This document shows, piece after piece, positions 4,001 to 61,440 of a stretch of 64,000 nucleotides of DNA. The notes beneath the pieces were generated by a model that was not told where the DNA came from, searched no databases, and was given only the letters and a program-made list of their open reading frames with translations. The position numbers were made by a program, and so were the translations under genes. The DNA comes from Ascidia mentula (taxonomy: Eukaryota; Chordata; Ascidiacea; Phlebobranchia; Ascidiidae): the NCBI GenBank assembly GCA_947561715.1, contig OX387205.1, positions 7,383,001-7,447,000 of the forward strand. Reading direction: 5' to 3'. Every line of letters starts with the position of its first letter. Position 1 is the first letter of the stretch.

Positions 4001-7000
4001 TCAATATGATAAATATTTGTTGGAATTGAATAACTTAAACACAGCAAACATGGTTCAGAAGAAGACTTTCTGCAAAAAAAGTATTTAAAATTTAATAATG
4101 TCAGAAAGCAGAGTGTAACAAAATTCCTGGTATTCCCAATAGTTTGGATGCTACCAAATTAAATTGTTATGTGAATAACCTATGGTTTGAACTTTTGTTG
4201 TGTAATCATAGTATCATACTTTTTCAAGTTGAAACATTTTATGTGACTGTAGATGTTTTTGTTAAGTTACAAAAGGAACAACATCGAAACAAAGCCACAA
4301 TTTCATCATTAGAAGAGCAAGTCGTCAGACTTACTAAAAGTTTGCAAGATGGTAATCAGTCTTTGCAATTTTTTCAAGAAGAAACTAAACTTCTGAAAAT
4401 ACAAGAGGAAAAAAGCAATAAAGTACATGATGAAGCACTTGACAGTTTACGCATAAAGGTTAAAGTGAATTTTCACAACTAATTTGTATTATTCTGTTTT
4501 AGTGTTTAGTCTTCAAATTTTTAAGATTATTCCTTTTATATTCCTTTCTTATAATGGCCCTGGGCTTATGACAGTCTAAAGTGAAAAATTTAGAATTTAA
4601 AGACAATTTAAAAGTCTGCTTTAGGGTTCTGTGAATATATAAATCACATAAATGGCAAACTTTTGTCAAAATATTTCGTTTTAACTCAACTACACATGTT
4701 GTGCAACGCAAAGAGAAGTATTCTTAATAAAGTTATTTATGAGCATGTGGAGCCAATAAGAGCCAAACCAGCTGCACTGATGAGACCTTTTAGGTCGAAA
4801 CAGTGGCCATCTGTCTGCAGCTTATACACAAAAGTTATTTATGTTCTTCCTGTTTTCTGTTATAATTGTGAAGCATACTGGGGTTAGACACGGGCTTGAG
4901 GTATACTTCAAAGGTCTTCCAGTTACTACAAAATGTTTTTTTTTTATTCCAAGCTCATTTTATTGGAGAGTAAATAGTAGAATTTGTACATATTTTATAT
5001 AAAGAGATTACGATATAAGCTGTGGTTTTAATGTTGGAAGTTTTTATTGCATCATAAAAAAATTTAAAAGTAGTGTAGTTAAGATACAACACTTTGATGA
5101 AATATCGGAATCACCAAACAGTCTTATGAGAAACAAAAATTTGGGATAGATCTGATTTAAAAGTTAAATTGGAAAATCCTTTGTCGTTCCTTGTGTTTTT
5201 GGGTTGAACCATCTCTGAAGGTTGTTTGCTTTGTTTCTAGTGGCTATGAGCACCATAATTTGTTTGACACAAATGATGAAATTAAAGGTAGACGAAAAAG
5301 TGACCAACAGTTACTTTGCAATGATTAGTTTGTCCCGGTTTGTAATGCAACAATCTATCACAAAAAGCCTGTCCACAAAGTTTTACTGCTCAATATTCAT
5401 TAGATCACAAATGTGAAAATTTTTTTAATCCAAGAAGATTGGTTTTAGTTATTGGTGTAAATGTATAGAGTTTTCCCTGTGTTTGATAATTTTTAGCTGT
5501 TTGTGGTTAATGTACAGAGATATTGCAATGCTGCAACCATTGATAATTTACTGTGTATTGTGATCAAACAGGAAGTGTGACAAATTTTTAACAGAGAATC
5601 ATTAACTTTATTACAGTGTGTTGAAGGGGTATGTTTAAAAAAAACATGTGCCAAGCCATTGTTTTAAAACCCAAATATGGATGCAGTAGGATATGTTTCA
5701 ACCTGTAAGGTCTCATCAGTGCAGCTGTTGAGTGGCACTGTGCTAGCTTTTACACTAGCAGGCACACTAATCTCCACTTTGTGGTACCTTTCGGTCAAAG
5801 TCGAACTGCGGGGTACCCTATACTGAGTACCGAACAACAGACACGACGAACCACTGTGTGGAGCGCACTATGGCCAAATGGATCTGCTTGGTAACCGATA
5901 GTGCAAAAAGCAAAAACACCATTGCAATATATGTGCAAAAAAATTATATTATTGGAAAGCTGCAGACAGGGTGTGTACACTCACTGTTTCGACCTGTAAG
6001 GTCTCACCAGTGGAGCTGTTGACTGGCATTGTGCTAGCTTTTACACTAGCAGGTACACTAATCTACACTTTGTGGTACCTTTTGGTTAACGTCGAACTGC
6101 AGGGTACCCTTACTGAGTACCAAACAACAGACAGTGCGTGTATACACCCTGTCTGCAGCTTACCAGATTAGATGTTGATATACAAATATGTTTGACCAAA
6201 TGATCCTTTGTGAGTGATGTAAATGGGCCTGTTTCATTGACATTTTAATGTGTTGTCAGGTTCAGTCAAGCTCAGAGGAAGTCCAACAACTTGAAGAATC
6301 ACTGATTAAGTGTAAACAAGATGTTGAAACTCATGTTCAACAACTTTATACATCCCAAATTAATTTTGAAAATCTGATTTCTGAAAAAAATTTACAGGTC
6401 TGTCTTAATAATTATTTTCTTGGTGCAGTGGAACAAATTATTTACTTTACAAAAGATTGAAGAATTGCAGACTGAAATTAACTTGAAGGAGTCATTGAAC
6501 TTTCAAATTTCTGCTCAACTTTTGGCTTTACAAAAGGAACACATAAAAAATGAAAAAATTTTGGAAACTGCTGCAGTTAATATTGATGAACTCCATGGTT
6601 GTGAAACCAATCTTCAGGCACAGGTAATCGAAAGAATGTATTCTGTTTTTATAATATTCTTCAAAAACATACTTTGTTAAGGTTTCCATATTGGAACAAC
6701 AGTTGCTGAAAGCTGGAGCAAAAAGTAAAAGTACTATTCAAGAAATGCAGGACAAATTGCATCTTGCTTATCATGAGTTGGAACAAAAAAAGCAAGAGTA
6801 TGAGAATCTCAACAGTACATTACGGTTAGTGTTTCGGTCACTTTTTATGTGATTCTTTTCTTATATAACTTCGGTTTTAGTAAAATTGAAGATGAATTTT
6901 CTGTAAGCAAATGTCAACTATCTTCTGTTGAAGAAAACCAAAAAGAACTAAATGAAGAAAATTTACATTTGAAACAAAGTTTGCAGAAATTCCAATTTGA

Positions 7001-10000
7001 ATGGAAAGAAATGAAAATGAAACTGGACAAAAAAATAGAAGAAGGTTTGAAATATAGTGTTCAGAAGAAATAGGGTTCTACATTAGACCCTTCTTTCATT
7101 GTCATGAAGTCCATTAGGGTTTTGGTATAGTGTTGACATAATAGAAAGTTTATTAAACTATTTGTCCTATAATTTATTCACTAATTCCAAATTTCTCTTT
7201 TGATTATGTATGGCATTGTATGCAAGAGGGAGGCACACATTGCAAAAGTCAGTAAATTTGAAAGCCACATTGTTTCTTTCTTTTTTCCAGTTGCTAAATC
7301 AAAAGAAGAGCTGGATATGTCAAAACGTGACCTGAAGAAAGTGAATGAAATCCATTTAAAAAAGGATGAAGACTTGAAAATTTTAAAAGGCAATTTTCAA
7401 GTAGGTCTAAACCACAGGTTGGCAACCCACAGATCATCTGTTTTGGCTCCTTAAAGACAGAAAGTTTACAAAAAAAAACATAGTGTAAATTAATAATCAA
7501 CATTTAATGATTATGGTGAGCTTGTGCCAGTATGTTTTGAATAAGATAAAGGTATGCTTATTTTTTTTGTGTCCAATAAAGGGTCAAACATTCCCTGCCA
7601 AATTAGGTTTTGTGGTTCTGGATATATTTGAGTTCACTCCAAAAGGGATAAAACTAGTTCTTTGTGTGCCTGTTAGTAAAAGTTTAACATCAGTCAAAAA
7701 TTTACCATATTTGTAATTTAGCCATGTTGTTTACGTAGATCAGGGGTCCACAAATGGTGAGCCCAATTTTTTGGCGCCAGACTGTCCTTTTTGAGCAGCA
7801 AAAAACCTAAATATAACAGTGTTTTTTAAGAAATTTACCAGGGTTTTCTTTATAAGTCGCATGTGCTAAAAACTTACATTTGCCACATGCACACAAAGCA
7901 GAGTGGGTACACTGTGTGTGCCTTCACTAAAGAGATTTTAAAATTACAGTAATAGTTTTAAAAGTGCATAATGCCTGATTTTACTAGAATATAGAAGAAA
8001 ACAATAAACTACTTCTTCAATCAATTGATTCATACAAACAAGATATTGAGCAAAAACAACTGGTAATTAAGCAGCTGCATGAAGATTTAAGGTTGGTTGG
8101 AACACAATCACCAGAATTAATTTTGAAAGTTTTTATGAAAGCATACTTTGTCAGTTGTTTTATATTTGCTTTTAGACTATTGTGTATGGGATAAAGCAGT
8201 GTCACAGTACCAGTTGTTCTGGCATGTTTTTGTTTTCCGGGTTTATTTGAAAATGATTCAAAAAGGTTTCATCTCAAAAAAGGCCTCGTTTTTTAAAAGT
8301 GGAAATATTGTAACAGCTGCTGCGTGTAACGGAAAAGGAAACTCACTTTGATAAATTGTTTAAATCAGTTTCCACACAACCGTATGTTACTTTTCCGCGT
8401 GTTGTTACATTCTGCAGTGAATCAGTTGTGCTTTGTTTGATTTTGAACGCCCGGCGCATCGTTCGCTTGAGTGAAGTTACAAAAGTTTCGTTTCATGTTT
8501 GAAGCAAAGACACGGTCCTACCTTCCGCCAAAGTATTTTGCCCGGTATTGAATCGAACTGTTATTTTACCTTTCTTACAGTCTTTCGGAAATTGAACAAA
8601 AAGACAAAACGGAATATGTTACAAGACTCGAAAACAAACTTGAAGAGAGACAGTTGCAATTGCGGCAAAGGACTGAGCAGGTTGGAACACCTCGACTGGA
8701 AACTTGCTGACTATTAAAAAAAACTCGCCTAGTCTTTGTCAGCAGTTTTTCTCGTGCATTAACGTTCGTACCTGTGGTACATTTAGGTGTCAGCGATTGA
8801 GGTACAAGTACGTGAACTCGAAGGCAACTCGGAGAGATGTCATTGGGATTTGTTTACTCGTCTGCAAAAGACACAATCGGAGTTAAATGAGCGCAATAAA
8901 CAAGTAAGTTCGATAGATGTAAACATTTTAAACATGAAAACGTCAAGATTGCGATTTTTGAAGAAAGATGTCAAAGCATTTTGTGTGAAAGGTCTCCGAA
9001 TTCGATGAGCGGGTTTGCAATATGCGAGATGAGATAAATGAACTGAATAACCTGTTATACGATGAGAAACGCAGAGTTGACAACTTCAAAACCGAACAGC
9101 GAAAATCTGAAAGACTTTTGCACGATGCTGAAAAGGTGTGACGTATTAAGTTTGATATCAGCTTATACCGCAGCTTAATTATCTGTTTCGGCAACGAAGT
9201 TGTTTTGAATGGTTTGTGCTAATGTTTGCCAATTTATTGCATATTGCAAGCGTTTGTCTGGGTGGTATTATATCATGTGTGTCATTGTAGTTTGGCACAT
9301 CAAAAAAATACACTCACAGCGATGGCGAGAAGTTTGTTTCATTAACTTATTTAAATATGGTCATTTTACGTACTGTACTAATGTATATCCCTTGAATGTT
9401 TTTACCTGCCAAAACAGCACTCGATTACAGTAGATCTAAAATAACCATGGCAGATTTATTTTTGTAACATTGAAGTATTTGACTTAACTATAGGCTAGTT
9501 GCTAATCCTGGCATAGGTTAGTACTCCATAGAAATCTTCTTTGTGGTGTTGATATTATTTATTTATTTATTATTCGGGTTTGGGCATGCCGACAACACAA
9601 TAAATAATGTTCAAAAAAATTACTGAATCTTTTTCAAGTATGTTTTCGAAAGCCTAAAAACTTTGTAACATTTACAGGCTTGTAAAGAGGAAAAAGCAGC
9701 AAAAGAAAAGATTAACGAACAATGTGAGAAACTCACCAAACAAATAACGGAGAAAGGGCAAGTAGAATTTAAAGCCTACACGGTAAGATGCATGTCGGCC
9801 ATCTGGCGCAAAAGACACCACAATATGATGTTTGTCCGCAGGAGTGCCGTCAGAATGTCGAACTTTATCGCAAACAGATCGAACAGTTGTGCTTACATAT
9901 AGACAAACTTACTAAACATGGCGCGGCTAAAGTAAGTGAACAAAGACTCATTTTGTTTGTGAGAAGAATTTGTCATATGCTCACATTAATGAATAAGAGC

Positions 10001-23720: not shown

Positions 23721-23810
23721 AGATTCCAGATTCGTTTATTTTTTTCCTTAAATGGGATCTTGCTGGAAGGCTACCGTGATCGGCCAAAATAGTCAAAAGT
23801 CTGCCTAAAC

Positions 23811-23960
23811 AACATGTTGCTTAAGTAACGAACATGTTGCTTATTTAACCAACATGTTGCTTATTTAACCAACATGTTGCTAAATAAGCAACGTGTGAAT
23901 TTTAATCCTTCTGGCGCCAAGCAACACGTTGCTTAATAAGTAACATGTTGGTTAAATAAG
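23811..23960. repeat. 20-bp palindromic tandem repeat with inverted partner
   Basis: Units of AACATGTTGCTTATTTAACC follow each other at 23811-23880, then the same words return in inverted orientation at about 23881-23960 around a short non-repeated centre. Each unit contains the palindrome AACATGTT, so the locus can fold in several registers. Confidence 0.75.
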
Positions 23961-25073
23961 CAGTGTTGATTCAGACTGTGACCCTTCTGGCCGCCCATAG
24001 TTGCGCGGCGTTCGTGCAGAAACCATCTGCAGATAAATGTGCAGATCATGATAACACCTTCATGCAAATGGAGTTTGTTGTTGGTTTGTTTCATATGTGC
24101 CTGTTTTTTGTGGGCACCAATTGCAGTGGCATCGCCAGACAGTTTGATCAAGGTTCACATTTTAATACATCATAATCGTTACCAGAGGGAATATGCGTAT
24201 TATGACATACGTCAAGATCGGCGGCCTGAACTTGTTACGACAAAGCATTCTACGCGCATAAACCCTTCAAAAGATATGATAATAGTTGGGAAACTAGGTG
24301 GGGCACTTGCAGAAATATGAATTGATACTTACAAAATATGAAAAAAAAACGTCGATTTTTCTTTGATAACTCTTGTTGTTGTTATGTGCCCCACGTTCAA
24401 TTTACAACCAAACGAAAGCACGTAAATTAAGCTTTCCACAAATATTAAACTTGCCTAAAACATAGTAGGCCCAGCCGAACACAGCTTAGCGCACCCCTCC
24501 ATTATGAACATGGTTTAGAGGTGGTCCGGCACATACTCTTGTTGATAAATGTTGGCCAGACATTGGCCCAGCTTAGTTTCAATTGTACTTAAAAATACAG
24601 TAGAGAAAAAGTAAATTTTGTTTTTGCAAATTTAAGTTAGGTAATGGACCAAACTTAATTGTAAATTTGGATTTAATGCTTATCGGCAAGCTATGTTGCA
24701 CAAACAACATCTATTTTACTCTATAGAAGAAGTAGTATTTGTATCTCAAGGCGACAAAGCTTTCAAAAAAAGCAGCAATCAATGTACCTGCCACACTGTT
24801 CTGCTTGTTACCATTTTGTCTTTTTTATATTGATAAAATGCATTGAATAAAGTTTTTGCTAATGCCTTTCTAATTTGTTAAAACAGTGCTTAGTTTCCTT
24901 GTTATCATTATCTTATGCTGGCTGCTGGTTACTTACCTTAAAAAAACAGTTTAGCCTTGGACACCTACATATTCAAAATTAAACATAATGTACTTTTAAA
25001 ACTTAACAACGCTTTTGTGTTTTTCTAGATTTAGGTCATGTTAATAAGTATTTGATTGCATCTTTGTTGGCAA
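23961..25073. other. Intergenic stretch upstream of EHHADH
   Basis: No gene recognised. An acceptor-like TTTTTCTAG ends at 25029, only 45 bases before the EHHADH start codon. This would suit either a 5' UTR intron or, if the host is an ascidian, a spliced-leader acceptor; that is inference. Confidence 0.4.
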
Positions 25074-28000
25074 ATGATGATGGCTACTTCTACTATAAAA
25101 GAAAATATTGCTGTGGTTTCAATAAATCATCCTCCTGTAAATGCATTGGGCAAACTGGTACGAAGTACATTGTTTAGTTTAATAACTGAGGCTATAAAGG
25201 ATGACAAAGTAAGTACCTTTTTAAAATAAGTGTAATTTTAAGTCAGTTCTGCTGTTATACAAAATTTTTGTCATTAGATTATATCAAATATATATATGAA
25301 TGGAAACAGGTTGTTTCTTCGTAATTTAATGATACACATTTTTGCTTTCAAATTACTGTTACTTGTGGTTAGCTTTATAAATATGAATGCGATAATCATG
25401 GCATTAAAAGTGTATCGAACAGTTACGTCATGTTATAAAAATCTCCAACATGAGTTTCTGCAGCCGAATATCTGCGATATTTTTTTTAGTTAGGAAGGAA
25501 GGAAGGCCTTGAATATAATAGTAGGGTACTATTTTTGTGTCTAGGCATCCTTATTTTTATACATTTTTTGCTGTTGTGTCCTGAGATTTTATCTCAACAA
25601 TTTTGAGGTAAAACCTCAGGACATTTTTGATTAACCCCAACAAGGTCATCATATTTTTATAAGCAACATCAGGGGTCCTGTTATGTCCGTATTTTCAGTT
25701 TATTGAAGAAAAATTTGCACTTGATTTGGATTTTGTATCATTCGAACTTATCATTCAGTTTACCAATGTAATTTGATTCTATATAATACTTATTTATTGG
25801 TTTTTATTCAACTGTATTTTATATTAGAGTAATTGAAATATGTATATTATAGGTGAAAGGAATAATAATATGTGGCAGCAACAGCATGTTTTCTGCGGGT
25901 GCAGATATCAGTGAATTTGGAAGCCCCAAATCAACATCTTTTCCAACCATTTATGATGTGAGTGAGCAAAATTTTTCAACAATTGTTTGAACCCAAAGCC
26001 AGGAAAAAAATACAGTAGAATTCGATTAAAGCGGATTCGATTGATCTTACAAGTTTTTTGAGATTAGGCAAAGTTGAGGATTGTCTGCAAACCTTTGTTT
26101 AAAGTTTTGTTGTGAATAGGGATGGGCAATATAGAATAACACACTATTCTAGAACATTCTAGAATAGTTAAATCGAATCAAGAATACCGAATCCTATTCT
26201 ATTTTGTTTTAGCTTGTACACTGAAGCACAATAAACATAAAAGATTTTTTTACATGACTCCAAGAACAAAGCACAATCAAAGAAAAAATATATTGCACTG
26301 TAATGTATCTAGGCTTTCTATGTGCTTGCCTGCCAAGCGACAACGTAATTTTGTGGCTGTCAAACCTGCACATCACAACCGCAGCAGAAGATTGACGAAA
26401 ATAAAGATGTTCTGAGTTTTAATGAAAAATGAAATTCACCTTTAACTCGCTCTGCCGTATCAATACGTTTTTTATCAAACACAGTTATCAGTTTACCTGA
26501 CAATTTTAAACGACAGATTTGCTGACAATTATAGTAGGGCACCAAAGTTTGCCTTTAACATTTACGTGCGGCTTGCATTCGAGGGCGGCTTACATTAATT
26601 TTTTAACACCGTTGCATGCGCAAATACGCAAAGTTGCCGTACATAGAAGGTAAATAACGCAACCCATTATTCGGTTTGAAGACAATTTGGATTCGGATAG
26701 TTTAAGATTCGAATCCTCCGGATTCGCTATTCTGAATTGCCTATCCCTAGTTGTGAATTAACTTCATACAAATTAGGTGAATTTCCAGATAAACTGAACC
26801 AGGATTAACTAAGTTTTACTGTATATAGTGTAGTGGATTCTCAACCTTTTTGTCCTGACAGACCCCTTTTGGTGGTGTCAGGATTGTTGCGGGCCCATTT
26901 GAGTTTTTCAAAATGTACTTCTGCTGATGTCTAAATACGGGGTGCCACATCACAATGATTATTGTTAATCAGTCCCATGGTTGAGATACACTGATTTAGT
27001 GTCTGGTCTTTGCTCCTTGCAATACTACAGCACCCATTTCCTAGAAATTTACTTCTGTACTTGTTCGTCACAGGTGCTTTAGGTAATTTTTGCATAGGGG
27101 TGAACAGACCAGATCAGTGCTTTTTAACCTGTTGGACCATCCACACTGATTATGAATATATGTTGTGCGAATGGCATGCATGGTGCAGATGACAATCGCC
27201 CGATAAATGGTCTTTTTAGTCTAAAATGTTTTCATATTTTGTTACCTATACACTCAAAACATGGAGTCAAAGTTTTTAGAGTGTAAACCACATTTCAGAA
27301 TTTTATTCGCCTGTGCCACAATAATTTTGGTGTGCATAAAGTGTCACATTGACCTTGAGAACTGTAAAAACTTCACAAAATATATATGCTTCAGTCGACT
27401 AGAACGTGCGACCCTCATCATGTTGTTCAAGCTAATATAATATTTTTCTGCAACATTCCGACACAACACAAAGTAAATCAATAATTTTGTGTGCAACATT
27501 ACAAAATCTTGCTGAGTGCGTCACCAATTCCCGAAAGTTTGGAATCCTTGTTCGCGACATTTTGATACAAGATGATGCATTTCTGTGAACTACAGACAGA
27601 TGGTCACTGTTTCGACCTATAATGTCTCATCAGTGCAGCTGACCAAACAGCCAGACAAAGACTTTTACTTCGTGGTGAATTTACAATCACCATCATCGGT
27701 TGGGCACCAAACTAGATGCATCCTTGTAGAGAAAACAAAATGTCGGTGATTATGGGTAAAAAAAAGCTAAGTTGATAGTAAACTGCTCCATAAAATGAGT
27801 TCTGAAAGTCCTGTTGCTGCCAGGCATATTGCAATTTAAAATATATATGCTGTATTTTTTGTGTTTTTTTTGACGTTTAGTCTGCCATGCGGCGAGACTT
27901 CATCAGGTATTGATACCGCAATTTCAAAGTTAACTACACTAAAACATGCAGGGGCACAAAAAAGTAAAAAGGGACACATTGACAACACTTGTCAGATCAC

Positions 28001-31000: not shown

Positions 31001-33864
31001 AATTTTAGCAAGTAACACAAGTGCTTTGAATATCAAGAGAATTGCACATGCAACAAACAGGCCAAATATGGTAACTATACTTAACTTAAGGTTTTTTTTT
31101 TGAATAAAAACATGGATGCTGTGAAACATTTACTCATCAAGAAACAATGTTCATAGAATTCTGTACTTGACAATGCCATTGTATTCTATTTTTCTTATTT
31201 TCTAAGCTTTGTTAAAGTTCGAAATCTTGTAGTATTTATGCGCAAAAGAGCCATAATAATCAATGAGAGCTGCAGACAGGGTGTATACACGTGGTTCGTC
31301 TGTGTTGATTGGTACCTAGTTTGGTACCCAATATATCGACGATTGACCGAAAGGTACCACAAAGTGGAAATATGTGTGCCTGCTAGTCTACCAGCTAGCA
31401 CAGTGCCACATCAACAGCTGCACTGATGAGACCTTACAGGTCGAAACAGTGCGTGTATACACCCTGTCTGCAGCTCTCATTGTAGTATTTAGGTGTTCAG
31501 TATCAGCTATCATGTCAGATATGAAATATATTATGTTGCAAGTTTTAATTAAAAATTTTCCAAACATCAACAAGTAAAAATGACAGTTTCAATTGGTTTT
31601 TCAATAATAAAAATTGCATTGTCTTCAAAAATACCCTCTATAATCCATATTTATGTTTGCTACGTTTTTAATCAGAGTTTGTTTGGCAGGTTGTAGGTAT
31701 GCATTTTTTTGCACCAGCACACTTGATGCCATTATTGGAGAATATTTACACTGAAGACACATCACCAGCAGTTTTGGCTACTGTAATGCATGTGGGAAAA
31801 ATACTTGGAAAACATCCAGTACATACCATAAAAACAGTTGATAGGCCAAAGCTTAATTGTATCTATATGCAGGTTCTTGTTGGAAACTGTCATGGATTTG
31901 TTGGGAACAGGATGTATGCAGCTTATACAACTGAAAGTGATTTTATGCTTGAGGAAGGGTCATATCCCCATGAGGCAAACAAACATTAAATTGATTAAAT
32001 GACATGCAGCATAATGTACTATTAAAATTGTATTTTTTAACAAAAATTTGTTTTGTTTTTCGATACCAAACAATTGAGAAGATAAAAAGGCCTATTTTTT
32101 TTATCAGGTTACAAAGTAATGTTCACAAATGTTTGATTTAACAGATTGTTCAAAATGTATAAATCTAATATTTTGTAAATTAGATAGATAAAGCATTGCA
32201 AGATTTTGGATTTCCTATGGGAAGATACGAAGTAGGTGATTTGTCTGGAAATGATGTTGGCTATAAAGTAAGACAAGGTCTTGGTCTTAACATGAAGGAC
32301 CAGCCTCCTGGTACACCAGAAACAATACGGTAGCAGTATGTTTGTACCTAAAATGCTTTTTAATATCAGGATATTTTTTGGTACAAATTAAAACATCAAC
32401 TTGTATTGTAGTTGGACCAGATCCCTGTGATGTGTTTGGGTTACTTTGGAGTTAATTTTTAAATAGTGTTATGAGTTTTGTAAAATGTAGGAGTTTCTTT
32501 TTAATTTTAGAAATGGATTGAGATATTCAAGTTTGGCAGATTTGCTTGTTGAATCCGGACGATGTGGCCAAAAAACTAATTGGAAGGGTTGGTATAATTA
32601 CGAGGGCAGAAAACCAATTCCAAGTCCCTTTGTAAAAAAATTAATAGATGATTACAGGAAAAGAAACAAGTTCACAACAAGAAAAATATACAAACAGGTT
32701 TGTGGCAGACAAAATTGGCATTCAAAAATAAAATCTGAGCATAAACAGACTAGTCCTTAGTGCTGAAAACATTAACATGTTTTATTTAGTAAAAAAGTTT
32801 GAACGTATTAAAAAAAAAAGTTATGCCATCTTCCGTTTAAAATGACGTGGTTGGTCTAGCTCCACAGTTATTTAGAGCTGACCAGGCTGACGTCACAGAT
32901 CGTAGCTAAGGCTGACGTGGGTGTTGACGACATGTGTCATTGCTATCAGTCATACTCCGTAAAAGCGATAAACAATTAATACACTGGTACTGTCCACATT
33001 AAGCTATGGCTGTTGTACGTACAGCACTTCGTCAGCAGGAGACGATACCTGTCTCTCGCGACGTAAGGATTTGCGGGTGAGTCGGGTTGTCGAACAGGTG
33101 TTCGCACACTTCCGATTTTGACGATCGTTGATGTTCAGCGATGCGTGTGCACAAGTTTCTTGGTGTCTCTCCAATAAAGGATTGACCTCACGAACAGGAG
33201 AGTTTGTACACTACGGATGAAAGGTGAAGGGTCTTCTGGTGATCTTTAAATGGAAAGCAAGTTTGTATGGTTCATGTGCCACTTATCTACGATCTGTGAC
33301 GTCAGTCTGGTCACCTCTATATAACTGTGGAGCTGGAGTGTTTGCCGAAAAATAACATCAATGTCAAACAAACTTAAGTAAAAAAGCAAGTCAATAATTT
33401 TTAGTGAACAACCTAGAACTTTATTTGAGCAGGAAATTTTGGAGAGGATGTTGTTTCCTCTAATTAATGAGGGTTTCCGAATTTTGGAAGAAGGTATTGC
33501 ATCAAAAGCATCAGATATTGATGTAGTTTGGGTGAATGGTTATTCATGGCCTCGGCACACTGGTGGGCCTATGTATTATTCACATACCATTGGTAAGTTT
33601 AACATTTTTCCACAAGCGCCACAAGACTATAAAGAGGATTCAGTGAAGAATAAAACAACTATAATTTCTGTTTAAATTTTAGGTCTGCCACATGTGTTGG
33701 ATGTGCTGAGACGCCGCTGGGAACAGTCTGACAAAAAGGAGTTGCACTGGAAGCCCAGTCAACTGCTTATATTTTTAGTCGAAAATTTTCAAAACCCAGC
33801 ACCAAATGATTGGGTAAAGCTATCCAAAGACTACTTAAAAAAGAAATGGAAGATATCATTGTGA
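25074..33864 (+). CDS. ehhadh: Peroxisomal bifunctional enzyme (enoyl-CoA hydratase / 3-hydroxyacyl-CoA dehydrogenase)
   Basis: Fifteen exons encode about 730 residues (human EHHADH 723): 25074-25208, 25853-25957, 28435-28535, 28735-28862, 29094-29260, 29329-29491, 30160-30330, 30502-30656, 30909-31070, 31690-31818, 31873-31974, 32184-32329, 32511-32697, 33433-33592, 33683-33864 (TGA). The N-terminal hydratase/isomerase half shows [27 protein letters not shown] and [17 protein letters not shown], with both catalytic glutamates. The dehydrogenase half shows the NAD-binding [17 protein letters not shown] with the catalytic histidine, and [10 protein letters not shown], then the helical domains around [14 protein letters not shown]. 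It catalyses two successive steps of peroxisomal beta-oxidation. The start is one of three in-frame ATGs in a row. The protein ends KISL rather than the SKL peroxisomal signal of vertebrate EHHADH. Introns include one of 54 nt and one with a GC donor. Intron 2 is filled with transposon relics. Confidence 0.95.
26117..26749. mobile_element. hAT-type non-autonomous element, 8-bp target duplication
   Basis: Ends TAGGGATGGGCAAT and, inverted, TAGGGATAGGCAAT, flanked by exact GTTGTGAA at 26109-26116 and 26750-26757. An 8-bp duplication and AGGG-type ends are typical of hAT elements. The middle (about 26340-26620) holds a minus-strand relic of the AAGCCGC-type MITE seen at 34732-35090, so it was itself a target. 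Confidence 0.8.
26340..26620 (-). repeat. Relic related to the 34.7-kb AAGCCGC MITE
   Basis: Read on the minus strand, it shares with 34760-34970 the order AAGCCGC(CCTCG), AAGCCGCACGT, GGTGCCCTACTATAAT-like, CAGCAAATCTGTCGTTTAAA and the Lys/Ser-rich frame beyond. Its ends are lost. It is nested inside the hAT-type element. Confidence 0.55.
26831..26987. mobile_element. Small hAT-like MITE
   Basis: Left AGTGGATTCTCAACC and right GGTTGAGATACACTG are inverted. Flanks ATATAGTG and ATTTAGTG agree at 7 of 8 positions, fitting an 8-bp target duplication. No coding. Confidence 0.5.
27588..27640 (-). ncRNA. Type I hammerhead ribozyme, weak stem II
   Basis: The minus strand has AGCTGCA, CTGATGA, stem II GAC.../...GTC (a mismatch in the fourth pair), GAA, stem III ACAG/CTGT, GUC, then TGTAGTT. 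The two changes in the last helix I strand are both C to T and give G-U wobbles, so helix I still closes. The core is intact; activity uncertain. Confidence 0.72.
27588..27717 (-). mobile_element. Retrozyme-like element, short-body type
   Basis: A ribozyme end at 27588-27640 is followed by a body containing CAATCACCATCATC and TTGGGCACCAAACTAG, both shared with the 52.3-kb copy. GATGCAT occurs just outside both ends, but I cannot define a clean target duplication. It lies in EHHADH intron 2. Confidence 0.65.
27861..28415 (+). other. 184-codon open frame in EHHADH intron 2, unrecognised
   Basis: An open frame without recognised domain. It is lysine-rich and contains a [10 protein letters not shown] segment. 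It is not in phase with EHHADH exon 3 and lies among transposon relics, so it is more likely decayed transposon coding sequence or chance than a gene. Confidence 0.2.
31227..31491 (+). mobile_element. Retrozyme-like element with exact 12-bp target duplication
   Basis: TTGTAGTATTTA at 31227-31238 and 31480-31491 encloses a 241-bp element. From left: an inverted copy of the monomer start plus ribozyme helix III (31239-31303), a body with GGTACC repeats and CTAGTTTGGTACCCAA, and a complete hammerhead at the right end. The inverted left end makes long terminal inverted repeats that could be mistaken for a MITE. It lies in the intron 31071-31689 of EHHADH, in gene orientation. Confidence 0.82.
31416..31475 (+). 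ncRNA. Type I hammerhead ribozyme, core intact
   Basis: AGCTGCA (helix I), CTGATGA, GACC-TTACA-GGTC (stem II), GAA, ACAG ... CTGT (stem III, with a self-complementary GTGTATACAC in its loop), C at 31468 as the cleavage base of a GUC triplet, and TGCAGCT closing helix I. All core bases and helices match the hammerhead consensus. Confidence 0.9.
31819..31872 (+). other. 54-nt in-frame intron of EHHADH
   Basis: GT at 31819 and AG at 31872 bound 54 bases, a multiple of three with no stop in frame. Removing them joins GKHP to [14 protein letters not shown], matching the vertebrate protein without a gap; keeping them adds 18 residues inside the Rossmann-fold region. Splicing is therefore favoured. 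Confidence 0.75.
31975..32183 (+). other. Probable GC-AG intron of EHHADH
   Basis: The exon ends CATGAG and is followed by GCAAAC; the next exon begins after TTAG at 32183. The join reads [18 protein letters not shown], colinear with human EEGSKPEE-VDQVLEEFGF. No GT donor nearby gives this join. Confidence 0.7.
32858..33334. mobile_element. MITE with about 50-bp terminal inverted repeats in an EHHADH intron
   Basis: The left arm AGCTCCACAGTTATTTAGAG and onward to about 32909 (including TGACGTCACAGATCGTAG) is repeated inverted at 33285-33334. No coding. The flank ATGACGTGGTTGG(T) AGCTCCA also occurs at the centre of the 49.1-kb palindrome, so the two are related. It lies in intron 32698-33432. 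Confidence 0.7.
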
Positions 33865-37780: not shown

Positions 37781-38035
37781 CCATGAAATCTTTGTGTACC
37801 TTGGAAAATATGCTACCCAAACCGAAGGCCGTAATTCCATGCTTCAAATGACCGGTGTATGTTTACTTAATTCCTTGCCGTGATTGCAACACAGTTTACT
37901 TGGTCAGACTAAACGTAATTTGACGTCTCGTGTTATTAAAGTACACAAGGCAGCCGTACACAATATGTGTTTGTTTTATTCTCTGAAGAAGCCTAGTCGT
38001 TCGTACAGGCGAAACGTCAGAAAAATACAATCTTT
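37780..38035 (+). mobile_element. Penelope-like element remnant (GIY-YIG endonuclease end)
   Basis: Translation around 37875-37970 reads CRDCNTVYLGQTKRNLTSR then VHKAAVHN, the C-x2-C and GQTKR-x3-R signature of Penelope endonucleases. A typical downstream CTGAAGAAGCC ... GGCGAAACGTCAG segment follows at 37982-38020. The frame is interrupted and the RT is absent, so it is a dead 3' fragment. It documents past Penelope activity. Confidence 0.6.
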
Positions 38036-48885: not shown

Positions 48886-48891
48886 GGAATA

Positions 48892-52282: not shown

Positions 52283-52506
52283 TGTCACGTCTGAATTGTG
52301 TAAACTGCAGACAGATGGCCATTGTTTCGACCTTTTAGGCCTCGATCATCAGTGCAGCTGGTGTGACTTTCAGACTACTTTGCTAACTAAACGGCCAAAC
52401 ACAATCACCGTCATCCGTTGGGCATCAAACTAGGTGCAACAGTGGCCATCTGTATGCAGTTTACATAATTCATATTATTAGCTGCACTTTGCTTGTCACG
52501 TCTGAA
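52283..52506 (-). mobile_element. Retrozyme-like element with exact 13-bp target duplication
   Basis: TGTCACGTCTGAA occurs at 52283-52295 and 52494-52506. Between them are about 35-bp terminal inverted repeats (GAATTGTGTAAACTGCAG and onward), a ribozyme end at 52303-52359 on the minus strand, and the short-body type with CAATCACCGTCATC and TTGGGCATCAAACTAG. The BEL/Pao element starts seven bases beyond the right duplication. Confidence 0.8.
52303..52359 (-). ncRNA. Hammerhead ribozyme relic
   Basis: On the minus strand helix I (AGCTGCA with TGCAGTT), CTGATGA, GAAAC and the GUC triplet are kept. Four extra bases stand between the core and stem II, and stem III has a changed pair, so it is probably inactive. 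Confidence 0.6.
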
Positions 52507-52513
52507 CGAATAT

Positions 52514-53140: not shown

Positions 53141-56100
53141 ATGAAAAAGCCGCAAGATCTTTCAGCGCTACGTGAGTTCCTGCCCCAAGTAAATGCAAAC
53201 TTTGATAAGCTAATTGAACTTCACTCAAATATGTCGGATAGTGATAAACTACCTGAGATAATCTCGCGTGAGCGAGATTATTGCCGAGACAAACAAGAAT
53301 TTGATAAAAGGGTCGCAACGTGGATATCGAAGCTGCATGATCCGCAGCCTAGATCCGTTCCCCTACCATTGTCACCAGCCGACGCGTTGTCTGTTCACTC
53401 GAGTAGAAATTCAACCTCGAGTTCTATACGAAGTGAAATTCGACGCAGTAAGGTGAAACTAAAGCTTGCGAAATTCGCAAGTGCTCAAGAAGCCGAAAAT
53501 GTACGAAGGGCCTCAGAAGAAGCAGATAGACTACGTCGTGCGGCAGAGCTGGAAGCAGATCGTGCACGTCGTACGGCCGAGCTAGAGGCGGAACGAATTC
53601 GACGTGAGGCGGAGAATGAAGCCCGGCGCATCAGCGAAGAAGCGGAGAAGCACGCTGCGCAAATGCGCCACGATTTGCAACTCGCTGAAGCTGAAGTGGA
53701 GGCATGGGAGGAAGAGTCTATCGGTAATTCAAGCCTGGCGTCTGTTACAAAAGGTAGTTCAATTTCTATCCCTCGCCCACGATTACTGTCAAATGTTTTT
53801 CAACATACGAGCTCACAGTTGCCGTCAAATGCTGTACGGGGCTCGTGTCCACAAATTAGGTCAAATGCGCAACAAATGGAAGCGCCCGTGAATGTGCCCG
53901 CACCATGCATCGAGAAGCATAGGACTGGTACGTTTGGTGAAATCCCTCGTGCAGACGCAAATAGTTGTTGCCCTAGTCCCCAAAATATCTCGCCACTACC
54001 AAAGACGTATCAGGACGCATACCATGTGAACTTGCCGAGTCCTGAAGTAACCAAATTTGATGGTGATTCACTAAATTACTGGCTATTCGTACGACAGTTT
54101 GATACCTACATTGCTAAGAAGGCCCACAATGATGAGATGCGGCTGTTGTATTTGGTACAGCACTGTAAACCCCATATTAGGGAAAAAATTGAACGCTTTA
54201 ACGCGAAAGATCCAGCCGAAGGGTACAGGCTTGCCTGGCAAACCTTGTATAACGAATATGGCCAACCTCACATTATCGCACAAAGATGCGAAGAACAGCT
54301 GATGTCAGCTCCGGTTGTCAAGGACAACGACCCCGATGGTCTTATGAAATTATCTGTGCTGTTGGACAAATGCTGTACGGCACTACATGGTGAGATAAGA
54401 CATGCTTCTAGTGTTGATTCCATGGATGTCATGTTGGCTGTTATCAGGAAACTCCCGTTTAGCATGCGAAAGGACTGGGTTTCGATGTCCGCACAGATTG
54501 AACATGACACTGAAAAACGAGCTACCTTTGCGACTCTTACAGAGTTTGTAGCACTAAAAAGCAAGGTTGCAAACTCGATTTTTGGTAAGGCGCTGTATTC
54601 ATCAAAGGAAGACAACAAAGGAAGCCGCCGGCCGAAGGCAATTGCGCACAGCACTGTGGCGACTTCTGCGCCGAAAATTAAGGACAAAACACACGTGCCA
54701 ATGAAGTGTTTGTTGTGCAACGGGAGCCATTCTCTTGACGCATGTGTCCAGTTTAGGAAAATGTCGTGGAATGATCGACGCAGGTTCGTGCGTTCAATGG
54801 GTTTGTGTTTTAAGTGTTTAAAGGCTGGCCACCGTGCTAGAGACTGTGATTCCAGTCAAAGTTGTTTAGTCAACGGATGCGATGGTAAATCGCACCACAA
54901 ATTGCTGCATTACCCAGCCCCTCCTACTGTATCCGAAGGGGTAAAGAATGACAATCCTGCTTGTGCTACGATCCGAAGTCGCGAGTACAGTGCAAGTGTC
55001 AACGCGTCTAGTGTGTACCTGAATGTTGTACCTGTCGTTGTTCGCCATGGGACCACTTCCATTGCCACGTACGCTTTTCTGGATCAGGGTTCAACCACAA
55101 CGTTTTGTGAACGTAAGTTGGTAGACAAATTAGGTGCGTCTGGACGACCCAAACAAATTTTGTTGAACACAATGACGACACCGCAAAAACTGGACACAAT
55201 CGCAATTTCCGTGTCAGTCGAACCACTTGATGGAGGTGAGCAAATAAACTTGCCAGAAGTAGTGGTTGTTGAACAAATACCTGTGAAACCGAACAAGTCT
55301 CCCACCTGGAAAACTCGGAAGATGCACCCATCAATAAGGAGTCTACAACTGTCTTCCATTGCTGGTGGAACTGTCACATTGTTGATTGGTGCTAATGTAC
55401 CTGTGGCACATCGTGTACAGTGCAGTCGTCCTGGAAACGACGAATGCCCAGATGCTGTGAAGACGCCTCTTGGATGGTCTTTGCTAGGTCGATCGCTCGA
55501 CCCTGTCCGCAAATCTGCTGCAGATGCCAACTTTACTTGCGTCATGGACACCGCCCATACCATGTTTCTAAGCGACGAGAGTGACCTGATCCCCAAAGAA
55601 GAAGACGAATTGTTTGGAAGTCCTTTCTCCAGGGAAGATCGGAGGACGTACCAATTGATGAAGGACTCCGTTCAATACATTGATGGACATTATGAATTGC
55701 CACTGCCGTGGAGACATGATCACCAAGTTTTGCCTAACAATCTGAAGATGGCCAACAAAAGATTAGAATCGTTGAAACGTCGATTGAGCAACGACGAGAA
55801 AATGCATCAGAAGTACGCTGAGCAAATGCAAGCAACAATCGACAAAGGATTTGCCGAAGAAGTACCGGAGGAGAAACTGATTACCAAATATCGGACGTGG
55901 TACATACCTCATCATGGTGTTGTGAACCCTCACAAACCTGGTAAGTTGCGTGTTGTGTATGATTGCGCAGCTCAATACCGTGGACTGTCTTTGAACCAAA
56001 CGTTGATGCAAGGTCCTGATCTTGTCAACAGTCTACTTGGTGTCTTGTTGCGTTTCCGCAAGTCGCCGATTGCCTTGGTAGCTGACATTGAGGCCATGTT

Positions 56101-58957
56101 TTACCAAGTGAGAGTTGCCCCTCGTGATCGTGACAGTTTGCGTTTCCTTTGGTGGCCTGGTGGGAACCTGTCAGGTGAGCCTGTGCCCCACAGAATGAAT
56201 GTACATCTCTTCGGGGCAACTTCGTCTCCAAGCTGCGCAACCTTTTGTTTACGTCAAACCGCTAGTGATTTTGGGAGTGAATTTGAACCCATTGTTGCCT
56301 CTACGGTTGAACGTAATTTCTACGTCGATGACTGCCTCACATCGGTAGCAGACGTTGAAACTGGATTGCAGCTTGTCGATGGTCTGCGCTCCTTGCTTGA
56401 GAAGGGTGGATTTCGCTTGACCAAGTGGTTGTCAAACTGCAAGGAGATTCTTGATCGCTTACCGGAAAATGAATTATCAATGGCTTTGCAGGTGCGCCCA
56501 CTGGATGCTGAATTACAAGAGCGTGTGCTTGGTATACAGTGGAATGTTCATGCTGACGCATTTCTGTTTGCTGTTTCGTTGCCAATGAAGCCGCGCACTC
56601 GCCGAGGCCTCTTGTCAACTATGAATTCTCTATTCGACCCATTGGGTTTTGTTACCCCCGTCGTGTTGCGAGCCCGGCTCATTTATAGGAGCTTGTGCAA
56701 GCAAGAAATTGAATGGGACGAAGAGATGCCTGCTAAGGACTTACGAAAATGGGAGAAGTGGTTAGTCTGCTTACACAGCCTGCAGGAAAGGCGCATTCCA
56801 CGATCATTTGGATTTGGTGTCAGCGCCAATGTGATAAGAAGTCAACTTCATGTGTTTGCTGACGCATCCAAAGAAGCCTACGGAGCTGTGTGCTACCTCC
56901 GATCAACGAATAAAGAAAGCGAAGTGACCTGTACCTTGGTTATGAGTAAATGTCGCCTGACACCCCAGGGTGAAAATTCTATTCCACGGTTGGAATTGAT
57001 GGCTGCTGTTCTGGCTGTGGACGTGGAACTGATTGTCAGAAAGGAAATGTGTTTGGACCTGCGTCCCTCTATATTTTGGACGGATTCGTCTGTGGTGCTG
57101 CAAAGCATTAAAAATGATAAACGAAGATTTCCGTTGTTTGTCTCTCGTCGTTTGGCAATGATCGAGAAGAATACCTGTGTGAAGAACTGGAAACATGTTC
57201 CGACGACGGAAAACCCTGCTGATTTGGCTTCGAGGGGAGTCTCAGCCGATGCCCTGGTGAGGAGTGAATTGTGGTTTGACGGACCATCGTTTCTCAAGAA
57301 GACGCCCGACTGCTGGCCAAATATGTTTGGTGACGCTGCTACAGATCCGGTTGAGGTTAATGTATTTGATAAGAAACCTTGTGGTGTGTTTACTGTGGTA
57401 GAGAAATGTCCTCCCACAGATGTTTTAATAACGAAATTTTCTTCGTTGTATCAACTTAAACGTGCCGCTGCATGGTTTTTGCGTTTGAAGGCAATTCTGC
57501 GAAGTGCGAGAACCGCGAGATTTGACTCCTCGGCCCTGAGAGTTGATGAGCTACGGACGGCTGAAGCCGAGTTGGTGAAATATGTTCAACGAGGTCATTT
57601 CTCACAATGGATGATAGCAATTACCCCAGATGGAAACTTGAAGAAACCAAGCAAGTCATCGGCAGTTTTTCGTATGGATCCTGTGATGATTGATGGAATG
57701 CTTAGGGTTGGCGGTCGTTTGGAAAAGGCGCCTATTCCTTTTGAGGCCCGACATCCTGCCATTTTGCCTTACAACTCGTACCTGACTGAGTTGCTAATTT
57801 CCCATTTCCATGCAGAGTGTGGACATTCTGGCGTGAACCACATTCTGTCCCAGATGAACCAACGCTATTGGATCGTTAAAGGTGCAGTGGCGGTGCGACG
57901 TGTTCTCCGCGCATGTTTGGTATGCCGGCGTCGCAACGCAAAGCCTGAAGGGCAAATTATGTCCAATTTACCGCCAGCTCGCCTGCAAATGAATGAATTT
58001 CCCTTTGCATTTACAGGAGTCGATTATTTCGGACCTCTAGTCGTCAAGCAAAGGCGCTGCGAAGTTAAGAGATGGGGTTGTCTCTTTACATGCCTAACTA
58101 CAAGAGCAATTCATCTCGAGGTGGCACATGACCTAAGCACCGATGCCTTTATAAATGCATTTCGCAGATTTATTGCTCGTCGCGGCGAAGTGCTGCAAAT
58201 TTATTCCGATAACGGCACGAATTTTGTGGGTGCTGCGCGTGTTCTTCGTGACGCCGTACGTGAATGGAACCAGAACCAAATAGAAGAGTTCTTCAAAAAG
58301 AAAGAAGTTCAGTGGCACTTTAACCCACCTGGTGCAAGTCACATGGGAGGTGCCTGGGAAAGGATGATTCGGTCTGTTCGACGCGTCCTCTCCTTGCTGA
58401 CGAACGAACGAGTCCTCAACGATGATCAACTGCAAACGTTTCTGCTTGAAGCGGAATCAATTATCAACTCGCGACCCCTGACTCCGGTCACACTTGATGA
58501 CGTTGGTGAGTCACCATTGACACCTAATCACTTGCTAAGGATAAATCCGTCCGGAGGGATGCCTCCAACCGTCACAAGTGATCGGGACTGCTACGCGCGC
58601 CGGGGTTGGCGCAAGGTCCAATATATTGCAGATCAATTTTGGAGACGATGGTCCCGGGAATACTTGCGTACAATCATCGCTCGCCAGAAGTGGCATCATG
58701 AGAAAAGAAATGTCCAGGTCGGTGATGTTGTCCTTCTGGTTGATGATGCTGCCCCCAGACGTTCTTGGTCGATCGGTCGCGTTGAATCAACCAATCCTGA
58801 TGACTTTGGTGTGGTCCGCAGTGTTCGAATTCGATCGAGAGGAACGATTGTGCGAAGACCCATTCACAAACTGTGTGTGGTCGTACCAGTTGATGGGAGA
58901 GGAGACGATCACCTGCCACACGATGACCCGGCGACAATGGTCGCTGAGAAACACTGA
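53141..58957 (+). CDS. BEL/Pao gag-pol polyprotein
   Basis: A single frame of 1,938 codons. In order: a charged coiled-coil stretch (about residues 110-195), the DUF1759-type gag region (about 300-460), cysteine knuckles including CFKCLKAGHRARDC (about 560), aspartic protease AFLDQGSTTTFCE (about 650), reverse transcriptase with FYVDDCLTS (about 1060), RNase H with VFADASKEAYGAV (about 1240), the integrase zinc region HFHAECGHSGVNH (about 1555), the integrase core with SDNGTNFVGA and HMGGAWERM (about 1695-1740), and the C-terminal DUF5641-like domain. This is the BEL/Pao order with protease upstream of RT and no envelope. Confidence 0.95.
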   Translation: MKKPQDLSALREFLPQVNANFDKLIELHSNMSDSDKLPEIISRERDYCRDKQEFDKRVATWISKLHDPQPRSVPLPLSPADALSVHSSRNSTSSSIRSEIRRSKVKLKLAKFASAQEAENVRRASEEADRLRRAAELEADRARRTAELEAERIRREAENEARRISEEAEKHAAQMRHDLQLAEAEVEAWEEESIGNSSLASVTKGSSISIPRPRLLSNVFQHTSSQLPSNAVRGSCPQIRSNAQQMEAPVNVPAPCIEKHRTGTFGEIPRADANSCCPSPQNISPLPKTYQDAYHVNLPSPEVTKFDGDSLNYWLFVRQFDTYIAKKAHNDEMRLLYLVQHCKPHIREKIERFNAKDPAEGYRLAWQTLYNEYGQPHIIAQRCEEQLMSAPVVKDNDPDGLMKLSVLLDKCCTALHGEIRHASSVDSMDVMLAVIRKLPFSMRKDWVSMSAQIEHDTEKRATFATLTEFVALKSKVANSIFGKALYSSKEDNKGSRRPKAIAHSTVATSAPKIKDKTHVPMKCLLCNGSHSLDACVQFRKMSWNDRRRFVRSMGLCFKCLKAGHRARDCDSSQSCLVNGCDGKSHHKLLHYPAPPTVSEGVKNDNPACATIRSREYSASVNASSVYLNVVPVVVRHGTTSIATYAFLDQGSTTTFCERKLVDKLGASGRPKQILLNTMTTPQKLDTIAISVSVEPLDGGEQINLPEVVVVEQIPVKPNKSPTWKTRKMHPSIRSLQLSSIAGGTVTLLIGANVPVAHRVQCSRPGNDECPDAVKTPLGWSLLGRSLDPVRKSAADANFTCVMDTAHTMFLSDESDLIPKEEDELFGSPFSREDRRTYQLMKDSVQYIDGHYELPLPWRHDHQVLPNNLKMANKRLESLKRRLSNDEKMHQKYAEQMQATIDKGFAEEVPEEKLITKYRTWYIPHHGVVNPHKPGKLRVVYDCAAQYRGLSLNQTLMQGPDLVNSLLGVLLRFRKSPIALVADIEAMFYQVRVAPRDRDSLRFLWWPGGNLSGEPVPHRMNVHLFGATSSPSCATFCLRQTASDFGSEFEPIVASTVERNFYVDDCLTSVADVETGLQLVDGLRSLLEKGGFRLTKWLSNCKEILDRLPENELSMALQVRPLDAELQERVLGIQWNVHADAFLFAVSLPMKPRTRRGLLSTMNSLFDPLGFVTPVVLRARLIYRSLCKQEIEWDEEMPAKDLRKWEKWLVCLHSLQERRIPRSFGFGVSANVIRSQLHVFADASKEAYGAVCYLRSTNKESEVTCTLVMSKCRLTPQGENSIPRLELMAAVLAVDVELIVRKEMCLDLRPSIFWTDSSVVLQSIKNDKRRFPLFVSRRLAMIEKNTCVKNWKHVPTTENPADLASRGVSADALVRSELWFDGPSFLKKTPDCWPNMFGDAATDPVEVNVFDKKPCGVFTVVEKCPPTDVLITKFSSLYQLKRAAAWFLRLKAILRSARTARFDSSALRVDELRTAEAELVKYVQRGHFSQWMIAITPDGNLKKPSKSSAVFRMDPVMIDGMLRVGGRLEKAPIPFEARHPAILPYNSYLTELLISHFHAECGHSGVNHILSQMNQRYWIVKGAVAVRRVLRACLVCRRRNAKPEGQIMSNLPPARLQMNEFPFAFTGVDYFGPLVVKQRRCEVKRWGCLFTCLTTRAIHLEVAHDLSTDAFINAFRRFIARRGEVLQIYSDNGTNFVGAARVLRDAVREWNQNQIEEFFKKKEVQWHFNPPGASHMGGAWERMIRSVRRVLSLLTNERVLNDDQLQTFLLEAESIINSRPLTPVTLDDVGESPLTPNHLLRINPSGGMPPTVTSDRDCYARRGWRKVQYIADQFWRRWSREYLRTIIARQKWHHEKRNVQVGDVVLLVDDAAPRRSWSIGRVESTNPDDFGVVRSVRIRSRGTIVRRPIHKLCVVVPVDGRGDDHLPHDDPATMVAEKH

Positions 58958-59744: not shown

Positions 59745-60110
59745 ATTCTGATAGAAAACCTAGGATTTGTACTTTGTTTTTCCGTTAATCGTTTTCCCGT
59801 TAATCAGCGCATCATTCTTGACAGATACAGAGATTTTAAAAAAATTATAGGGGGCGGAAAGTATTTTGGCACGCGGTTGAATGTGACATACCCCCCCCTA
59901 GCAAAACACGCAAAATCGCTTGTGTTTGAAGTCATTCTGATGGAATGCCTGGGATTTGTACCGATTTTAATTGTTTTCTCAAAAAAAAAATTATAGGGGG
60001 CGGAAAGTATTTTGGCACGCGGTTGAATGTGAGGTACCCCCAGTAGAGAAATACGTAAAATCGCTGATGTTTGTAGCCATTCTGATAAAAAAGCGTGGGA
60101 TTTGCTGCCA
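59745..60110 (-). repeat. Tandem repeat, right (inverted) arm
   Basis: About two copies of the same unit as 50790-51560, in opposite orientation (GGGGCGGAAAGTATTTTGGC at two places, about 59856 and 59998). Confidence 0.85.
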
Positions 60111-60300
60111 TTAATTTGTGTGTACTAACTGTCCTGTTTGATTTTGGTTTAAATAACTAGACCTACTGTGATTTATGGACAGAACAAACACGTTTGTATC
60201 TTATAAACCATCTCGTGAAATGGTGATCATTAATGCGGAACGACTATTTCGAAGAAACATATTCGGATTCTGCCAGAATGACAGTAGTAGCACTACTGCC

Positions 60301-61202: not shown

Positions 61203-61440
61203 CTGCCGCTCTCATTGACTAATGGCTCTTTTGCGCTTATAATATGATTTGGGTGAAAGCCGAGCCGATAGCGCCATTGGATCCCAAACAGTTGTTTGGC
61301 CATAGTGCGCTCCACGTGGTTCGTATATGATGATTGGTACCTAGTTTGGTACCCAACATATCAACGATTGACAGAAAGGTACCACAAAGTGGAAATCTGT
61401 GTGCCTGCTACAGTCTACCAGCTATCAGCATGTGCCACGG
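61203..61440 (+). mobile_element. Retrozyme-like body without ribozyme end
   Basis: It begins near TGCCGCTCTCATTG, the counterpart of the sequence just 3' of the ribozyme cut at 31.47 kb, and includes TGGCTCTTTTGCGC (shared, inverted, with 31239-31254), GCCATAGTGCGCTCCAC (shared with 5853-5876), GGTACCTAGTTTGGTACCCA and GGTACCACAAAGTGGAAAT. The similarity stops at GTGCCAC, where the hammerhead would begin, so this copy shows the full body but no ribozyme. Confidence 0.75.

What the first reader, a model, noticed from the sequence alone, without database searches (positions are those of the whole stretch)
4742..61440. A dispersed family of hammerhead-ribozyme retroelements (retrozyme-like): six loci in 64 kb
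Seen: near 4.8, 5.7-6.2, 27.6, 31.3 and 52.3 kb the sequence holds AGCTGCA-CTGATGA-stem II-GAA-stem III-GUC-TGCAGCT arrangements, with the same body motif (CTAGTTTGGTRCCCAA) in four of the loci; 61.2 kb has a body without ribozyme. Known: type I hammerheads occur in animal retrozymes, small non-autonomous elements with circular RNA forms. Inference: this is an active or recently active retrozyme family with two body types, one with GGTACC repeats and one with CAATCACCRTCATC, so self-cleaving RNA is common in the introns and spacers of this genome.
Basis: partly seen in the sequence, partly recalled or inferred. Interest (0 to 1): 0.93.

Follow-up and report, generated by a model that had tools for sequence, protein, structure and literature searches.

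The report
Hammerhead retrozymes with Penelope-style insertion ends
A sea-squirt genome carries over a thousand copies of a self-cutting RNA motif in tiny mobile elements, and the way their ends sit in the DNA points to a Penelope-type retroelement as the machine that copies them.

Summary
The window has six loci from two related families of a non-coding element with a type I hammerhead (HHR); two ribozymes look intact (4770-4822, 31416-31475). The genome (196 Mb; best COX1 match Phallusia, so an ascidian) has 1,642 exact HHR-pattern matches against 0 for the reversed pattern. Tandem copies give monomers of 285-286 nt (type 2) and 293-295 nt (type 1), GC 0.47-0.48. This fits the published metazoan non-LTR retrozymes (PMC7229834).

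Many are head-to-head, both outer ends being sense 3' ends, flanked by AT-rich target duplications of about 12 bp. In 32 of 32 independent two-armed insertions with a duplication, one end lies about 12 nt and the other about 42 nt past the cleavage site. The same genome holds Penelope-like elements (RT plus GIY-YIG); both copies with readable ends show the same layout, with a 12-bp duplication and one 38-40-nt tail. In a lizard Penelope element this tail is the gap between two RT start sites (PMC11167929). Penelope machinery is therefore the likely mobiliser. Self-cleavage, circular RNA and trans-mobilisation remain untested.

The parts
4729..4741 (.). left target-site duplication of locus A (AAAGTTATTTATG), repeated at 4831-4843
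   Evidence: exact 13-bp direct repeat
4742..4830 (+). locus A, type 2, 89 bp: minus arm 4745-4759 (tail only, type-2 coords 24-38) plus plus-arm from 4761 with an intact-looking HHR 4770-4822
5694..6165 (-). locus B, type 1: minus arm 5694-6129 (about 1.5 units, one HHR truncated at GAAACA, one with CUGGUGA core) and plus arm 6131-6160; no duplication of 9 bp or more found
27575..27738 (-). locus C, type 2, diverged (72%); HHR 27590-27641; no duplication of 9 bp or more found
31227..31238 (.). left target-site duplication of locus D (TTGTAGTATTTA), repeated at 31480-31491
   Evidence: exact 12-bp direct repeat
31239..31479 (+). locus D, type 1, 241 bp: minus arm (coords 277 to +36, long end) and plus arm (113 to +11, short end); intact-looking HHR 31416-31475
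52283..52295 (.). left target-site duplication of locus E (TGTCACGTCTGAA), repeated at 52494-52506
   Evidence: exact 13-bp direct repeat
52296..52493 (-). locus E, type 2: minus arm with HHR 52297-52359 (4-nt insertion before stem II, probably impaired; short end +16) and plus arm from 52431 (long end +42)
61203..61438 (+). locus F, type 1 body, coords 1-234, no HHR, no duplication of 8 bp or more found

Best explanation
Two related families of a non-autonomous metazoan retrozyme. Inferred: tandem copies are transcribed, the type I HHR cuts after GUC, and the monomers of 285-295 nt are closed into circles by a host ligase. Shown: most cDNA arms run through the cleavage junction and one insertion holds six or more units, so the template had an intact junction (circular or uncleaved multimeric). 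Inferred from the ends: a Penelope (PLE) RT/GIY-YIG protein, probably a dimer, cuts both strands of an AT-rich target about 12 bp apart. Each 3' end primes one cDNA, one at an RT start site about +12 and the other at about +42 past the cleavage site. The two cDNAs are joined head to head, leaving one end with a tail of about 30 nt.
For: HHR motif 1,642 times vs 0 control. Monomers of 285-286 and 293-295 nt in tandem, GC 0.471-0.478. Exact duplications of 11 bp or more in 35 of 72 loci left after removing duplicates, block copies and two false repeats, vs 1 of 214 shuffled pairings (first pass with duplicates 46 of 96 vs 0 of 284). Minus-then-plus layout in 51 of 74 such loci, plus-then-minus in 0 of 74. 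32 of 32 independent two-armed insertions with a duplication have one short and one long end, 0 short/short, 0 long/long. 107 of 119 outer 3' ends in the start zone belong to arms that cross the cleavage junction. PLEs: 134 GIY-YIG matches, 20 of 134 in open frames of 732-892 aa; neighbours within 5 kb are minus-then-plus 19 times, plus-then-minus 0, same strand 6. One PLE unit has RVT_1 plus GIY-YIG in an 889-aa frame. PLE copies L094 and L095: 12-bp duplications, ends at +84/+44 and +61/+99 past an HHR-like site. Published: PLE tail = gap between two RT start sites, both strands cut, AT-rich targets (PMC11167929).
Against: No expression, cleavage or circular-RNA data. Predicted folds are no more stable than shuffles (five stretches, z -0.55 to -1.19); for type 2 a competing helix wins. 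Rfam scores stay below gathering. Over the whole HHR the two families are not clearly more conserved than over the body (44/53 vs 119/165, p 0.15; only a 35-nt core stretch picked afterwards gives 33/35, p 0.004). Sister arms of one insertion are usually no more alike than unrelated copies (best or tied in 5 of 20 insertions). In the sample drawn by HHR pattern alone, 9 of 16 kept loci show one orientation only. One of 214 shuffled pairings also gave a 13-bp repeat. Only two PLE copies had both ends read, and only short chance-level matches link PLE L093 to the retrozymes.
Confidence: 0.77

Rival explanations
1. The elements are retrozymes moved by a LINE-type RT; the head-to-head copies are ordinary twin priming.
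For: Twin priming also yields inverted arms; LINEs move many short elements (recalled).
Against: Both outer ends are 3' ends within two narrow zones, one of each in 32 of 32; no poly(A) tail at the four insertions read by eye; PLEs of the same genome show the same layout.
Confidence: 0.1
2. They are DNA transposons or MITEs, the 31-35-bp inverted repeats being terminal inverted repeats.
For: Locus D has a perfect 31-bp inverted repeat and a 12-bp duplication.
Against: The two ends of one insertion differ by 23-52 nt, arm lengths vary along the whole monomer, and a multi-unit insertion shares one duplication (L092).
Confidence: 0.02
3. The loci are 3' fragments of an autonomous PLE family whose 3' end carries this HHR, not an independent circular element.
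For: PLEs here carry HHR-like motifs near their 3' ends, and solo PLE pLTRs are reported in A. vaga (PMC3846280, passages).
Against: Head-to-tail units of 285-295 nt join directly through the HHR, too short for an RT ORF; PLE L093 does not resemble type 1 or 2. Only three PLE copies were read, so a matching family is not excluded.
Confidence: 0.08

Closest known systems
Metazoan non-LTR retrozymes (Cervera and de la Pena 2020, PMC7229834)
   Same: Type I HHR, 150-450-bp units, tandem copies, GC under 50%, duplications longer than 4 bp, co-existence with PLEs.
   Different: Here many copies are short head-to-head insertions with one tail; the sections I read (results parts 1-2, discussion) describe tandem copies and do not mention inverted arms or tails. 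New host group for me: no ascidian retrozyme paper came up.
Penelope-like elements, e.g. Poseidon of Anolis (PMC11167929) and Pen of Adineta vaga (PMC3846280)
   Same: Head-to-head inverted copies, one optional 30-40-nt tail, AT-rich targets, short duplications (8-10 bp in the passages read for A. vaga), HHR nearby (Anolis).
   Different: The elements described here have no RT ORF and an HHR with its own stem III, whereas PLE HHRs are described as minimal (PMC7761336, passages).
Plant LTR retrozymes (as described in PMC7229834)
   Same: Small non-coding retroelements with HHRs.
   Different: Type III HHR, LTR/PBS/PPT, 4-bp duplications.

Membership tests
Metazoan non-LTR retrozyme | type I hammerhead (strand ends in stem I) | tested here: met
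   AGCTGCA-CUGAUGA-stem II-GAAA-stem III-GUC-TGCAGCT; open ends lie in stem I (topology rule recalled). Catalytic activity not tested.
Metazoan non-LTR retrozyme | 150-450-bp units in tandem | tested here: met
   285, 286, 285, 285, 285 bp (L092), 293 (L012), 295 (L017). Direct tandems are a minority: same-strand neighbours within 600 bp at 2 places among the 100 listed HHRs.
Metazoan non-LTR retrozyme | GC below 50% | tested here: met
   0.471-0.478, seven units
Metazoan non-LTR retrozyme | target duplication longer than 4 bp | tested here: met
   35 of 72 independent loci with 11 bp or more, shuffled pairings 1 of 214
Metazoan non-LTR retrozyme | no LTR, PBS or PPT | tested here: inconclusive
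   insertion ends carry no direct LTRs; PBS and PPT not searched for
Metazoan non-LTR retrozyme | self-cleavage and circular RNA of 170-400 nt in vivo | not testable with these tools
   needs RNA
Penelope-like element (autonomous) | ORF with RT and GIY-YIG endonuclease | tested here: not met
   the retrozyme monomers of 285-295 nt are too short for such an ORF; it is present in separate PLEs
Penelope-type insertion signature | head-to-head arms, one 30-40-nt tail, short duplication | tested here: met
   32 of 32 two-armed insertions with a duplication have one short and one long end, difference 23-52 nt, median 29.5; PLE copies L094, L095 alike. One-armed copies also exist (23 of 74).

The most novel reading that the evidence does not exclude
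Metazoan retrozymes are the SINEs of Penelope: a PLE dimer copies hammerhead-made RNA circles by opening both strands of an AT-rich target and obligatorily loading one strand end at each of two RT start sites about 30 nt apart, so every two-armed insertion gets exactly one short and one long end, even when the two arms come from different RNA molecules. The one-of-each rule would be a general rule of PLE integration.
Probability: 0.6. Interest if true: 0.78.

Novelty: new member of a known kind. Interest (0 to 1): 0.62.

Why it matters
Which enzyme moves metazoan retrozymes is open; the 2020 paper names PLEs only as a strong candidate, on shared HHRs, tandem copies and co-existence. Here the insertion ends themselves carry the PLE signature, down to two start zones and one tail per two-armed insertion. 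That gives a direct genomic test for any retrozyme in any animal, and a short natural RNA substrate for in vitro work on PLE integration, whose mechanism is still little known (PMC11167929).

Tried and rejected
Rfam scan of the window and of L092, L012, L065: hammerhead models stay below gathering; L093 gave no hammerhead match. RF00163 in the genome: nothing, but the control rang nowhere either, so it says nothing. Thermodynamic folding: no excess stability over shuffles. Sister-arm test for a single RNA template: not supported in general. Enrichment of arm 5' ends at the cleavage site: seen only weakly by eye, not claimed. Covariation: not attempted. Viral contigs: 0 matches. Ascidian or Ciona literature on hammerheads: searches returned 2 and 0 papers; one of the two, on Didemnum vexillum, reports 9 type I hammerhead loci (PMC8704543, passages read). 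DNA transposon reading: rejected because the two ends differ and arms vary. Recount corrected my first counts: the 46 of 96 include duplicates, block copies and two repeats lying inside the element.
Full report
Observation. A strict HHR pattern occurs 3 times in the window against 0 in 100 shuffles. In the whole genome (196 Mb, 79 contigs) it occurs 849 plus 793 times, against 0 plus 0 for the reversed pattern. The host is an ascidian: its COX1 is 90.1% identical to a Phallusia protein under code 13 (that this code applies is recalled), and 80.8% or less to the other nine rows printed, compared only with the 120 proteins listed. The species is not known.

Element. Reading tandem copies from cleavage site to cleavage site gives units of 285, 286, 285, 285 and 285 nt in L092 (type 2) and of 293 and 295 nt in L012 and L017 (type 1), with GC 0.471-0.478. 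HHR core rules and positions are recalled knowledge. Types 1 and 2 are related. Identity is 119 of 165 in the body (type-2 coordinates 61-225) and 44 of 53 over the HHR region, a difference that is not significant (p 0.15). Over a 35-nt core stretch picked afterwards it is 33 of 35 (locus D against type 2; the alignment shows the same two differences), p 0.004. In loci brought in by similarity, a strict core pattern was found in 27 of 30 type-1 loci and 16 of 30 type-2 loci.

Sampling. Ends were studied in 96 stretches: 60 brought in as the best matches to window loci D and E (L001 and L031 are D and E themselves), 30 from the first pattern hits on contig C1, L092, which I picked because it is a tandem, and five window stretches. 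D and E are themselves two-armed, so the first 60 favour that layout. removes 10 duplicates and 12 copies of two larger repeat blocks, leaving 74 loci.

Insertions. Of these 74, 51 are minus-then-plus (head-to-head, both outer ends sense 3' ends), 23 show one orientation, 0 are plus-then-minus. By route: 21 of 23 and 18 of 28 in the two similarity samples, 7 of 16 in the pattern sample, 4 of 6 window loci, and L092. So head-to-head is common, but its true share is nearer the pattern sample. Without L027 and L087 (repeat lies inside the element), 35 of 72 loci have an exact direct repeat of 11 bp or more at their ends, against 1 of 214 pairings of left and right flanks from different loci.

End rule. 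Exact ends were mapped for 45 loci with duplications of 10 bp or more. Thirteen rows were set aside before the count: L007 and L030 (duplicates of L006 and L029), L027 and L087 (repeat inside the element), L069-L072 (copies of one larger repeat), L042, L046, L050, L055 and L075 (one arm only). The remaining 32 (24 from the similarity samples, 4 from the pattern sample, 3 window loci, L092) all have one end at -12 to +17 (median +12) and one at +31 to +55 (median +42); 17 have the short end on the left and 15 on the right. With independent, equally likely ends this has probability 2.3e-10. Duplications are 10-15 bp long as printed, GC 0.21. L063 is a further single-arm copy (read by eye).

Template. 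Of 119 outer 3' ends lying in the zone 1-62, 107 belong to arms that run through the cleavage junction; of the 12 that do not, 11 are long-end arms (+38 to +57) that stop short of it. A cleaved linear monomer could not give the 107; a circle or an uncleaved multimer could. L092 holds one inverted and several direct units within one 12-bp duplication; its arms are identical over 148 nt, while the best other locus reaches 97.3%. But this is not general: counting each insertion once, the sister arm is the best or tied match in only 5 of 20 insertions, and in L038 (84.4% vs 95.5% for the best other copy) and L060 (84.5% vs 94.8%) the arms look like products of different RNAs. A circular template is thus allowed but not proven.

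Mobiliser. The GIY-YIG model gives 134 matches (150 of 382 candidates scored), 20 of them inside open frames of 732-892 aa. [quoted passage not shown] Neighbouring GIY-YIG matches within 5 kb are minus-then-plus 19 times, plus-then-minus 0 times, same strand 6 times; retrozyme HHRs within 600 bp among the first 100 listed of 1,642 are minus-then-plus 8 times, plus-then-minus 0 times, same strand 6 times. The two PLE copies with both ends read have 12-bp duplications and ends at +61 and +99 (L095) and +44 and +84 (L094) past an HHR-like motif. So retrozyme and PLE share head-to-head arms, a duplication of about 12 bp and one tail of about 30-40 nt. In the lizard PLE, RT starts at two adjacent sites inside the RNA, the tail is the sequence between them, and the protein cuts both strands, preferring AT-rich DNA (PMC11167929, parts 1 and 2 of 4 read: abstract, main text, start of methods). 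In A. vaga a 31-bp tail is optionally present on one inverted pLTR, with duplications of 8-10 bp (PMC3846280, passages).

Literature. PMC7229834 (outline, results parts 1-2 of 3 and discussion read) calls PLEs a strong candidate. PMC7761336 (passages) and PMC8969392 (passages) say much the same. A search for papers with both retrozyme and Penelope since 2017 gave 12; of these I looked into three (PMC7229834, PMC7761336, PMC8969392) and found no mention of tails in retrozymes in what I read. A search for Penelope, non-autonomous, hammerhead and tail gave 4 papers, seen as a listing only. PMC11167929 does not use the word retrozyme. A description elsewhere, or in the papers I did not open, cannot be excluded.

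Verdict. A new ascidian member of the metazoan retrozymes, with junction evidence that PLE machinery inserts it. Shown: motif, copy number, monomer, duplications, end rule, same layout in PLEs. Inferred: cleavage, circle, PLE in trans, dimer loading.

Noticed in passing
window 53141-58957 (+): Open frame of 1,938 aa with Peptidase_A17, DUF1759, Integrase_H2C2 and DUF5641 matches: a Pao/BEL-type retrotransposon with an uninterrupted frame. Retrozyme locus E lies about 0.6 kb upstream.
   Followed up: partly
window 27873-28136 (-): Stretch resembling the 3' end of the Penelope-like element in L094 (91% over 35 nt, 69% over 103 nt), directly beside retrozyme locus C.
   Followed up: partly
window 37983-38030 (+): CTGAAGA...GGCGAAACGTC motif that looks like a minimal Penelope-type hammerhead.
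   Followed up: no
window 23805-23966: Strong inverted-repeat block built from CAACATGTTG-like units; gives sub-threshold microRNA matches on both strands, probably a palindromic repeat.
   Followed up: no
L069-L072, L076, L077 and L079-L084: Two sets of near-identical blocks on contig C1 that carry a diverged type-2 retrozyme, so the retrozyme seems to have been amplified again inside another repeat.
   Followed up: no
G000:C67:6134028-6146916: Array of five GIY-YIG matches, two minus then three plus, 2,870 bp apart within each orientation: a tandem plus head-to-head Penelope array; one unit read as L093.
   Followed up: partly
retrozyme coords +12 to +45, both types: Both families share GGCTC..TTGC between the two mapped end zones, and the segment can fold as a hairpin; it may be the binding site of the RT.
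   Followed up: partly
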